Translations under genes and position numbers: made by a program
Assembly (NCBI RefSeq): GCF_004135385.1
Contig: NZ_CP035493.1
Location: forward strand, 3,105,440-3,169,439
Direction: 5' to 3'
DNA length: 64,000 bases
From: Xylanimonas protaetiae
GTDB lineage: Bacteria > Actinomycetota > Actinomycetes > Actinomycetales > Cellulomonadaceae
In this document: positions 36,903 through 39,731 of the stretch, in pieces
Numbering within the stretch: position 1 is the first letter of the stretch
How the letters are laid out: every line of letters begins with the position of its first letter
The notes under the pieces: generated by a model
What the model saw: the letters and a program-made list of their open reading frames with translations, nothing else
Told to the model about the DNA's origin: nothing
The model's database searches: none

Positions 36903-37529
36903 TTAGCGTGCGTAGAACTCGACGACCAGCTGGACCTCGCAGGTCACGGGGACCTCGGCGCGCTTGGGGCGGCGGGTCAGCGTGGCCTGGAGCTTCTCGA
37001 GCTGGACCTCGAGGTAGCCCGGGACGGCGGGCAGCACGTCGCGGTGGGCGCCGGCGGCGGCGACCTGGAACGGCGTGGTGGCCTGCGACTTCGGCTTGAC
37101 CTGGAGGGTCTGGCCGGGCTTCACGCGGAACGACGGGCGGTCCACGATCTTGCCGTCGACGAGGATGTGGCGGTGCGTGACGGCCTGGCGCGCCTGCAGG
37201 ATGGTGCGGGCGAAGCCGGAGCGCAGCACGAGCGCGTCGAGGCGGGTCTCGAGGTCCTCGACCATGACCTCACCGGTCAGGCCGGCGGTCTTGCGGGCGT
37301 TCTCGTAGACCTTGACGAGCTGCTTCTCGCGCAGCGCGTACTGGGCGCGCAGACGCTGCTTCTCGCGCAGACGCACGGCGTAGTCCGACTCGGTGCGGCG
37401 ACGGGCGCGGCCGTGCTCGCCGGGCGGGTACGGGCGCTTCTCGAAGTGCTTGACGGCCTTCGGGGTGAGGGCGATGCCCAGGGCGCGGCTCAGGCGGACC
37501 TGGCGGCGCGAACGGGTCACAGAGGTCAC
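36903..37529 (-). CDS. rpsD: 30S ribosomal protein S4, zinc-free form
   Basis: 208 residues starting [20 protein letters not shown]. It lacks the N-terminal cysteine cluster, so it is the C-minus paralog type. [10 protein letters not shown], the S4 RNA-binding fold ([39 protein letters not shown]) and [16 protein letters not shown] follow. GTG 37529 has AGGAAG 6 nt upstream, far from the frame's upstream end at 37766. A long structured leader precedes it. Confidence 0.96.
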
Positions 37530-37609
37530 TGTGCTTCCTGTCCTGTAGTGATCTGAAAAGGTCACACCCGGGCCGCGGTCGCATCGAATGATGGTGCCGT
37601 GCCGGGTGC

Positions 37610-37659
37610 GGGACCAGCCGATGTCCTCCCGTTGCGGGGAGGATCGGGGCCGAGGTCCC
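37610..37659 (-). ncRNA. Candidate structured leader RNA of rpsD
   Basis: In the proposed transcript GGGACC (37654-37659 side) pairs with GGTCCC (37610-37615 side). An inner stem TCCTCCC/GGGAGGA (37624-37630 with 37637-37643) has a 6-nt loop, and additional G-C pairs lie between. S4 autoregulates its own mRNA through leader structures in other bacteria, so this could be an S4-binding leader. No family match can be confirmed by eye. Confidence 0.4.
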
Positions 37660-37699
37660 AGGTGGTCGCCCGCCGGAGAACCCGCAAGGCAACCTGAAC

Positions 37700-37705
37700 A
37701 TCTTA
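37700..37705 (-). promoter_or_regulatory. -10 box TAAGAT of the rpsD promoter
   Basis: TAAGAT on the minus strand would start transcription near 37693 and give an rpsD leader of about 165 nt. The remaining part of 37706-37770 shows nothing recognisable. Confidence 0.5.
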
Positions 37706-37770
37706 CCCCAGGCGAGCCGCTGCCCCGCCCGAGAGCCTCGTCACGCGGGCCGCGCGCTCGGGGCACGCAC

Positions 37771-38340
37771 TCACGGCACGCGGCGGATCAGACGGGCGAG
37801 CGGGTACTGCGCCACTGCCACCGGCAGCACGAAGAGGGGCGTGACGGCGGCGTCGGTGGCCCAGTGGACGAGGTCGACCAGCCCGGCGACGCGCGGCTCG
37901 GCGCGGAACCCGTCGCGCGGCAGCACGTGCAGGTACCCGTCCACCGTGAGCGGCGCGGCGGGGTCGGCGACCCGGACGTCGCGCCAGTACCAGCGGGTGC
38001 GCGCCCGCGGGCCGAACGCCATCGACGCGTTGCGCAGGTTCCACGCGTTCTGCCGGTTGACCAGCGCGTAGTACATCGCCCAGTGCGGGTCCGGCGTCGC
38101 GTACACGGCGTGCTGGTTGCCGAAGTCGCGCGTGTCCTTCGCCTGCGTGGTGCGCAGCTCGTCGAGGCGGTGGTTCGAGCCGTGGAACGCGAACGTCTCC
38201 AGCGACGCGAGGTGGTCGAGGTACCGCGTCAGGTCGTCGGGGCGGTCCGGGGCGCCGTCCAGGTGGGCGGCGAGCAGGGCGTCGTAGCGGGCCCGCGTGG
38301 TCCGGTCGAGGCGGCGCCGGCGGTAGGGGCGGATCCTCAT
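37771..38340 (-). CDS. Uncharacterised protein with ADP-ribosyltransferase-like motifs, coupled to rarA
   Basis: 189 residues, not firmly recognised. After a basic N terminus ([13 protein letters not shown]) comes [14 protein letters not shown] (His53-Gly-Ser), then [18 protein letters not shown] (Tyr80-Ala-Thr) and [15 protein letters not shown] (residues 135-149). The order H-G-S, Y-A-T with following A-x-x-x-A/Y residues, then a GYxHVLP strand, is reminiscent of ART/PARP-type or KptA-like folds (H-Y-[E/Q] class); Glu148 could be the third residue. ATG 38340 overlaps the rarA stop (ATGA), so both are co-translated. A nucleic-acid- or protein-modifying role at stalled forks is only inference. 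Confidence 0.55.
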
Positions 38341-39731
38341 CGCCGGTCGAGGATCTCGCGCACGCGCTGCAGGCGGTCCGTGATCTGCCGTTCGTAGCCG
38401 CGGTCGGTCGGCTCGTAGTAGCGGCGGCCCACCAGGTCGTCCGGCAGGTACTGCTGCGGCGCGACGGCGTGCTCGACGTCGTGCGGGTAGACGTACCCCT
38501 TGCCGTGGCCCAGGCCCTTCGCCCCCGCGTAGTGGGCGTCGCGCAGGTGCGTCGGGACGACGCCGATGCGGCCCGCGCGCACGTCCGCGAGCGCCTCCCC
38601 GATGCCGACGACGACGGCGTTGGACTTGGGGGCGGTGGCGATGTGGATGACGGCCTCGGCGAGGATGATCTGCCCCTCGGGCATGCCGACCATCTGCACG
38701 GCCTGGGCGGCGGCGACGGCGGTCTGGAGGGCGGAGGGGTCGGCCATGCCGACGTCCTCCGCGGCGTGGACCATGAGGCGGCGGGCGATGTAGCGCGGGT
38801 CCTCCCCCGCGGCGACCATGCGGGCGAGGTAGTGCAGGGCGGCGTCGACGTCGGACCCGCGCAGCGACTTGATGAAGGCGCTGATGACGTCGTAGTGCTG
38901 GTCGCCGTCGCGGTCGTAGCGGACGGCGGCGACGTCGACGGCGCGCTCGACGGTGGCGAGGCCGATCTCGACCGGGCCGTCGGCGGCGGGGGCCGGTGCG
39001 GCGTCGGCGTCGGACAGCGCGGTGCCGGCGGCGGCCTCGAGGACGGTCAGGGCCTTGCGCGCGTCGCCGCCGGCCATGCGCACGAGCTGGTCCTCGGCGT
39101 CGTCGGCGAGCGTGACGGTGCCGCCGAGGCCGCGCTCGTCGGCGACGGCGCGCCGCACGAGGGCGCGGACGCCGTCGTCGGTGAGCGAGCGGAGCGTGAG
39201 CAGCAGGGAGCGCGAGAGCAGCGGGGAGATGACGGAGAACGACGGGTTCTCGGTGGTGGCGGCGACGAGCGTGACCCAGCGGTTCTCGACGGACGGCAGG
39301 AGGGCGTCCTGCTGGGACTTGGAGAAGCGGTGCACCTCGTCGATGAACAGCACGGTCTCCTCGCCGGAGGAGGCGAGGCGGCGGCGGGCGTCCTCGACGA
39401 CGGCGCGCACGTCCTTGACGCCGGCGGTCACGGCGGACAGCTCGACGAAGCGGCGGCCGGAGACCGTGGCGACGAGGTAGGCGAGCGTCGTCTTGCCGGT
39501 GCCGGGCGGCCCCCACAGGATGACGGAGCCGGGCGCGGCGCGGCGTGCGGCGTCGTCGACGGGCTCGACGAGGCGGCGCAGGGGCGAGCCCGGTGCGAGC
39601 AGGTGGTCCTGCCCGGCGACCTCGTCGAGCGTGGCGGGGCGCATGCGGACGGCGAGCGGGGCGCTCGCGCCGGGACGCGTCACGACGGGGGTCCCGTGCT
39701 CACCCGTGGTGATCGCGTCGAACAGGTCCAT
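38337..39731 (-). CDS. rarA: Replication-associated recombination protein A (RarA/MgsA) AAA+ ATPase
   Basis: Clamp-loader-related ATPase acting at blocked replication forks (WRNIP1 homolog). 464 residues. Walker [15 protein letters not shown], Walker [17 protein letters not shown], sensor 1 AATTENPSF, then [15 protein letters not shown] and the C-terminal tetramerisation domain ending [23 protein letters not shown] lies 6 nt before ATG 39731, giving a leaderless mRNA. Divergent from the nucleoside-kinase-like gene. Confidence 0.96.

What the first reader, a model, noticed from the sequence alone, without database searches (positions are those of the whole stretch)
37771..39731. rarA is translationally coupled to an unknown ART/PARP-like protein
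The ATGA overlap at 38337-38340 ties the RarA fork ATPase to a 189-residue protein with His53-Gly-Ser, Tyr80-Ala-Thr and a GYxHVLP strand in the order seen in ADP-ribosyltransferase or KptA-type folds. If it is such an enzyme, it could modify DNA ends, RNA ends or a replisome protein when RarA meets a stalled fork. I know of no described RarA-ART system.
Basis: inference. Interest (0 to 1): 0.62.

Follow-up and report, generated by a model that had tools for sequence, protein, structure and literature searches.

The report
Lone ADP-ribosyltransferase-like gene behind rarA
Directly behind a DNA-repair gene this bacterium carries a single extra gene whose protein is predicted to fold like enzymes that transfer ADP-ribose from NAD; it belongs to a scattered protein family without a curated model, and its place next to the repair gene looks like an accident of insertion.

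Summary
In detail: a 189-aa ORF (37771-38340, minus) starts inside the rarA stop codon (ATGA, 38337-38340) and holds the motifs named. The fold guess is supported too. I collected relatives from Actinomycetota, Chloroflexota, Deinococcota and Pseudomonadota. An AlphaFold model from 41 sequences (pLDDT 87) has Arr, an ADP-ribosyltransferase (ART), as its top two Foldseek PDB hits; 31 of 35 entries in the structural second look are ARTs, all at Z under 8. His53 is in 45 of 45 members with a letter there; position 80 is Tyr in 39 and Phe in 7 of 46.

The rarA link is not supported. The search found the gene in none of 220 other genomes of the same GTDB family. rarA lies near none of 57 other family loci. 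In four same-genus genomes rarA is followed directly by the rpsD leader, so this is a one-gene insertion. The closest relative found (45% identical, same order) lies between rpoC and rpsL.

Best reading: an acquired stand-alone mono-ADP-ribosyltransferase-like enzyme, Arr-like in architecture, beside rarA by position only; substrate unknown. NAD use, activity and the third catalytic residue are unproven, and no sequence-level match to a known ART family is significant.

The parts
37771..38340 (-). ART-fold protein, 189 aa plus stop; divergent short member of a family without a curated model
38337..39731 (-). rarA (MgsA/WRNIP1-type AAA+ ATPase), upstream neighbour
   Evidence: Pfam MgsA_C E 6.2e-71
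38337..38340 (-). ATGA overlap: start codon of the ART gene and stop codon of rarA
   Evidence: sequence read directly
38176..38184 (-). motif I, His53-Gly-Ser
   Evidence: H in 45 of 45 members with a letter at this column, 1 gap
38095..38103 (-). motif II, Tyr80-Ala-Thr
   Evidence: Y 39, F 7 of 46
38080..38091 (-). family signature D84-x-x-W87
   Evidence: D 45 of 46, W 46 of 46
37918..37938 (-). third strand motif G135-Y-L-H-V-L-P141
   Evidence: G135 46 of 46, L140 and P141 43 of 46 each
37897..37899 (-). Glu148, candidate third catalytic position (Q in most members); assignment by eye
   Evidence: Q32 E5 M4 I2 S2 L1 among 46; inference
37532..37662 (-). conserved upstream region (leader) of rpsD, downstream of the insertion
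   Evidence: alignment with 4 same-genus genomes
36903..37529 (-). rpsD (ribosomal protein S4), downstream neighbour
   Evidence: Ribosomal_S4 E 2.8e-18, S4 E 6e-17; start by reading

Best explanation
The ORF is a single gene acquired in this lineage and inserted between the end of rarA and the leader of rpsD (shown by the site without it in four same-genus genomes). It encodes a stand-alone protein with the ADP-ribosyltransferase fold (shown by prediction only), a short divergent member of an ART-like family that has no curated model. Most likely it binds NAD+ in the ART cleft, with His53 holding the ribose and Tyr80 packing on nicotinamide (inferred from what is known of other ARTs), and transfers one ADP-ribose to one acceptor, as Arr does: a small molecule or one housekeeping protein (inferred). 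The start/stop overlap would give it expression from the rarA transcript by coupled translation (inferred). No work at stalled forks needs to be assumed.
For: Fold: models of the window protein (pLDDT 87.1, pTM 0.85) and of a family representative, L044 (pLDDT 94.5, pTM 0.90). Foldseek's top two PDB hits are Arr for both (window: prob 0.90 and 0.82; L044: 0.82 and 0.41). In the VIA second look of the window model 31 of 35 listed entries are ARTs: TreX Z 7.0 (rmsd 3.9, 99 aligned), Tpt1 Z 6.7 (2.7, 78), Arr Z 6.6 (3.6, 100), tankyrase Z 5.6 (4.5, 123); for L044 49 of the 50 shown. Residues: H53 45 of 45, aromatic at 80 in 46 of 46, W87 46 of 46, D84 45 of 46. The one weak Pfam hit of the window protein is DUF3990 (E 0.0057, 16.8 bits against a cut-off of 32.2, aa 52-96), a family of the ART clan (PMC7955679, passages). 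Insertion. No shared specific neighbour. Closest relative in another place: rpoC-[gene]-rpsL, 45% identity.
Against: All VIA Z-scores are under 8 and no Foldseek PDB hit has E below 0.001; of the 50 Foldseek rows shown for the window only 4 are ARTs (two Arr, TreX prob 0.47, PARP16 prob 0.14), the rest unrelated at prob 0.11 or less. The VIA lists repeat the same proteins many times (PARP14, tankyrase). Profile comparison with Arr and with KptA gave probability 0.1 each, no better than an unrelated control (0.5). No Pfam match of any of 46 members is better than E 0.0057. The third catalytic residue is not fixed: column 148 is Q/E in 37 of 46, otherwise M, I, S or L. The window copy has a very long branch (3.25 changes per column) and lacks Arg65 (R in 41 of 46) and the C-terminal HDD...FPW end of most members, so it may have another activity or none.
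Confidence: 0.6

Rival explanations
1. A dedicated RarA partner: the ART modifies DNA ends, RNA ends or a replisome protein when RarA meets a stalled fork.
For: Four-base start/stop overlap with rarA; Arr of mycobacteria, the top Foldseek PDB hit, is induced by DNA damage (PMC3138739, abstract and passages). That DNA ADP-ribosylation can stall replication is the title of a paper seen only as a cited reference.
Against: Not found in 220 other same-family genomes; no rarA match in 57 other loci of the family; the closest relative sits between rpoC and rpsL.
Confidence: 0.04
2. A toxin of a toxin-antitoxin or interbacterial system (ART acting on a host protein, DNA or RNA).
For: VIA ranks 1-3 are the Rhs ART toxins TreX/TreTu; sporadic distribution, two Deinococcus and two Arthrobacter plasmids. 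On one of these plasmids an annotated toxin and ribbon-helix-helix pair lies about 1.2 kb away.
Against: No gene family recurs beside the 49 loci as an antitoxin or immunity gene would (crude gene calls); no PADLOC match of the window protein; most members read are about 225-235 aa from their likely start, without a delivery domain.
Confidence: 0.12
3. A pseudoenzyme: an ART fold that lost NAD transfer and binds a nucleotide or protein.
For: Position 80 is Phe in 7 of 46, column 148 is not Q or E in 9 of 46; the window copy lacks Arg65 and the family's usual C-terminal end.
Against: His53 is kept in all 45 with a letter there; D84 and W87 are nearly invariant, which fits a kept active site.
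Confidence: 0.2
4. RNA 2'-phosphotransferase of the Tpt1/KptA type.
For: Tpt1 is among the top VIA rows of the window model with the lowest rmsd of these: Z 6.7, 2.7 A over 78 and Z 6.4, 2.5 A over 76.
Against: No PF01885 match in 46 members at E<=1; the second His of the three KptA members fetched (VHLS) is Tyr/Phe here; hhalign probability 0.1; no Tpt1 row among the 50 shown for L044.
Confidence: 0.04

Closest known systems
Arr, rifamycin ADP-ribosyltransferase (PF12120)
   Same: Top two Foldseek PDB hits; small ART; HGT ... VY strand order as in 8 family members fetched
   Different: No PF12120 match at E<=1 and hhalign probability 0.1; longer N-terminal helical part; the Asp of Arr (Asp84, PMC13246000 passage) would be Gln/Glu if my by-eye alignment is right
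TreX/TreTu Rhs ART toxins
   Same: Highest VIA Z (7.0)
   Different: No Rhs carrier in the members read and no recurring neighbour that could be an immunity gene
Tpt1/KptA
   Same: ART core, Z 6.7 for the window model
   Different: Lacks the second His and any PF01885 match at E<=1
PARP catalytic domains
   Same: ART core, many VIA rows at Z 4 to 5.6; H-Y order
   Different: No PARP Pfam match at E<=1, no conserved Glu in the third strand motif
DUF3990 / DUF6886 (Pfam)
   Same: Weak matches around motif I: DUF3990 in 1 of 46, DUF6886 in 16 of 46, best E 0.0057 and 0.0084
   Different: Below the curated cut-off where bits were shown; a single DUF6886 member gave hhalign probability 1.6

Membership tests
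ADP-ribosyltransferase superfamily | ART fold (split beta sheet with NAD cleft) | tested here: met
   predicted models: 31 of 35 and 49 of 50 listed VIA entries are ARTs, Foldseek top hits Arr; but all Z under 8
ADP-ribosyltransferase superfamily | motif I His (H-Y-[EDQ] and H-H-h clades) | tested here: met
   45 of 45 with a letter
ADP-ribosyltransferase superfamily, H-Y-[EDQ] clade | motif II Tyr | tested here: met
   Y in the window; Y 39, F 7 of 46, and F in the closest relative
ADP-ribosyltransferase superfamily, H-Y-[EDQ] clade | motif III Glu/Asp/Gln | tested here: inconclusive
   column 148 Q/E in 37 of 46, but its equivalence to motif III was set by eye only
ADP-ribosyltransferase superfamily | NAD+-dependent transfer | not testable with these tools
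   needs an assay
Arr (PF12120) | Pfam signature | tested here: not met
   no match at E<=1 in 46 members; hhalign probability 0.1
KptA/Tpt1 (PF01885) | Pfam signature and second catalytic His | tested here: not met
PARP | Pfam PARP signature | tested here: not met
   no match at E<=1 in 46 members
DarT | Pfam DarT signature | tested here: not met
   no match at E<=1 in 46 members; window protein has no PADLOC match either
RarA-ART system | conserved adjacency to rarA | tested here: not met
   0 of 57 other distinct loci within the flanks held; site without the gene in 4 same-genus genomes

The most novel reading that the evidence does not exclude
The family is a new clade of bacterial ARTs with an H-[YF]-[QE] centre that modifies the transcription or translation machinery under stress: the window copy and its closest known relative sit beside rpsD and between rpoC and rpsL, and mycobacterial Arr has been tied to RNA polymerase, protein L11 and ribosomal gene control. 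In this strain the rarA overlap would switch it on with fork stress.
Probability: 0.08. Interest if true: 0.65.

Novelty: new member of a known kind. Interest (0 to 1): 0.36.

Why it matters
It adds a widely scattered family to the ART superfamily for which no Pfam or NCBIfam model gave a significant match, with stand-alone members in free-living bacteria and on plasmids. Knowing its acceptor would show whether it inactivates small molecules, as Arr does, or regulates a cell component. It also shows that an operon-like overlap with a repair gene can be a single lineage-specific insertion.

Tried and rejected
Single-protein scans gave nothing in genome contigs, viral contigs and phages, and no NCBIfam, PADLOC or PHROGs match. 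Sequence searches of solved structures gave only chance hits. Alignment-based scans of viral contigs found no relative. hhalign against Arr, KptA and one DUF6886 member gave no support; an unrelated RarA alignment as control scored about the same. DUF3990 members could not be collected (0 of 119 genomes), so that profile comparison was not made. A phylum-wide profile search found only the window copy among 396 genomes. Limits: in the family search at most 13, in the phylum and order searches at most 7 first-look candidates per genome were scored, so misses are possible; the profile recovered the two known genomes used as a check. The BFVD search had one hit at E<=0.001, an uncharacterized Megaviridae protein (E 1.7e-4); 5 of the 50 rows shown bear PolyVal ART labels, most others no function. 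The promoter/terminator scan was empty and says little at 74% GC. Considered and put aside: decaying pseudogene (the closest relative, shares the short end and motifs).

An own error, mended: the rpsD query was translated in the wrong frame. One search repeated it with the right frame and gave the same four same-genus loci.

Papers: PMC7955679, PMC3138739, PMC13246000, PMC13175385 and PMC10287957 were seen as passages, the abstract of PMC3138739 among them; all others only as search listings. Searches for a RarA-ART link listed papers, mostly on the human gene RARA; the two on bacterial RarA that I opened mention ADP-ribosylation only in a reference title. Searches that might have named this family gave no title about it. 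One held library only.

Rows dropped: L027, L028, L029, L031, L034, L060, L070 and L073 of the 49 loci were left out of alignment A4 (near copies, broken frames or an unknown residue). L024 was left out as a copy of L023, and L002 because it is the same place as L026. For the folds (A5, A6) L003, L021, L022, L023 and L059 were also left out. The three order-level relatives came after A4 and are not in its counts.

Full report
Observation. The minus strand carries rarA (38337-39731, 464 aa) and, starting inside its stop codon, an ORF of 189 codons (37774-38340; stop 37771-37773). RarA is secure by Pfam (MgsA_C E 6.2e-71).

What the protein is. Alone it matches nothing above threshold: the only Pfam hit is DUF3990 at E 0.0057, below cut-off, and NCBIfam, PADLOC and PHROGs give none at E<=1. 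A genome search found two clear relatives among 393 other genomes of the class: G261 (34% identity, E 5.9e-15) and G253 (32%, E 1.1e-11); 92 further genomes with rows between E 0.001 and 1 look like chance. Four plasmids hold relatives: two of Deinococcus (E 4e-6 and 2e-7) and two of Arthrobacter (E 0.1 each). An alignment of three of these relatives brought 49 loci from Streptomyces, Amycolatopsis, Actinomadura, Microlunatus, many Chloroflexota, Devosia, a Deinococcales bin and others; one of them, L026, is the G261 place again. The joint alignment of 46 sequences shows a clear family: HG[ST], FGN, [YF]A..D..WAM, N, Y.F, G.VY.LP...F, and in most members a C-terminal HDD...PW end.

Fold. AlphaFold2 gave a confident model of the window protein (pLDDT 87.1, pTM 0.85, 41 sequences) and a better one of the L044 member (94.5, 0.90). 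Foldseek against PDB has no hit at E<=0.001. Its top two hits are Arr for both models (window: 9iaf prob 0.90, 2hw2 prob 0.82; L044: 0.82 and 0.41). Of the 50 rows shown for the window, TreX (0.47) and PARP16 (0.14) are the only other ARTs, and the rest have prob 0.11 or less. In the VIA second look of the window model, 31 of 35 listed entries are ARTs: TreX/TreTu, Tpt1, Arr, the PARP family, CARDS toxin, typhoid toxin, exotoxin A (that several of these are ARTs, and that the typhoid chain is the ART subunit, is recalled). The other four are CC0527, CNFy, OspC3 and lymphostatin. For L044, 49 of the 50 entries shown are TreX, Arr or PARP-family, with no Tpt1; the last is CNFy. The lists repeat the same proteins, and all Z are under 8, a level the tool calls middling. 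My argument is that one superfamily fills the lists, not a single score.

Active site. Of 46 sequences, H53 is present in 45 (one gap), position 80 is Y in 39 and F in 7, D84 is in 45, W87 and G135 in 46. This fits motifs I and II of the H-Y-[EDQ] clade as described in PMC7955679 (passages). Motif III is open. By eye, the VYVVEPTGPFEDDP stretch of eight Arr-family members lines up with the family's VY.LP...F..QP, which would put Glu148 of the window (Q in 32, E in 5, other in 9 of 46) at the place of an Arr aspartate. hhalign did not reproduce this, so it is inference only.

The rarA link. The family profile finds the gene in the window genome and in none of 220 other genomes of the GTDB family, the 10 other genomes of the genus among them; a protein search of 58 relatives also found none. 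In the order, 3 of 395 other genomes have a relative. The rarA protein has no match in 55 family loci nor in the three 18-kb regions of the order hits; these are 57 distinct places, as L002 and L026 are one. Flanks were 1.5 to 6 kb in the 55, shorter where contigs end, so a more distant rarA is not excluded. Eight other genomes of the genus gave a rarA match. In four of them (L076, L077, L078, L083) rpsD lies 180-210 bp behind the rarA stop, against 807 bp in the window, with no ART gene between. In the other four no rpsD and no ART match fell in the fetched flank. Alignment shows that the extra 0.6 kb lies between the last rarA codons and the conserved rpsD upstream region; a fifth sequence, L079, does not share that region. 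It reads as if the insertion gave rarA its present stop codon. The nearest relative, in G1226 (45% identity, 206 aa, same short C-terminus, Phe at position 80), lies on the opposite strand between rpoC and rpsL (Pfam: RNA_pol_Rpb1 domains and Ribosom_S12_S23). So rarA is not a kept partner. Clustering of crude gene calls around 49 loci found, besides the family itself, only two-component and ABC-transporter domains, antisense frames over the gene itself, and three-locus sets, at least one of them confined to related species.

How it most likely works. Stand-alone, scattered, partly plasmid-borne, without a recurring partner or carrier: this pattern resembles Arr more than a toxin system. I propose NAD+-dependent mono-ADP-ribosylation of one acceptor, expressed with rarA through the overlap. 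Shown: ORF, family, conserved residues, predicted fold, insertion. Inferred: NAD use, transfer, acceptor, coupling. Arr in mycobacteria is induced by DNA damage and affects ribosomal protein genes partly without catalysis (PMC3138739, abstract and passages); this makes a stress role thinkable but is no evidence for this gene.

The window copy is an outlier (branch 3.25 changes per column, place unsure). It lacks Pro64 and Arg65 of the family and the C-terminal end. The G1226 copy shares the short end and the RWY and YP.AR.I stretches, which speaks for a subfamily, not for decay.

Verdict. A real member of an ART-like family without a curated model; the RarA-ART system is not supported.

Noticed in passing
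window 37532-37662 (-): The region upstream of rpsD (S4) is highly conserved in 5 genomes of the genus and folds into hairpins with variable loops (GGGACC...GGTCCC, GCACCCG...CGGGTGT). 37 pairs predicted, 5 with two-sided changes, but the covariation term is +0.36, so covariation gives no net support; no Rfam match at E<=1 in 37400-37900. Possibly an S4 autoregulatory leader not in Rfam.
   Followed up: partly
L109 8619-9239 (G1226): The closest relative of the window protein sits antisense between rpoC and rpsL, again next to a ribosomal protein operon; two cases only.
   Followed up: partly
L003 1129-2352; L066, L068, L069, L071, L072: A subfamily carries extra C-terminal residues, and L003 also an extra N-terminal part; domain unknown.
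   Followed up: no
L034, L070, L073: Some family copies look broken (frame lost), which would fit a dispensable accessory gene; sequencing errors are not excluded.
   Followed up: no
L083 (G006): rarA in this same-genus genome matches in three main pieces, either a broken gene or assembly errors.
   Followed up: no
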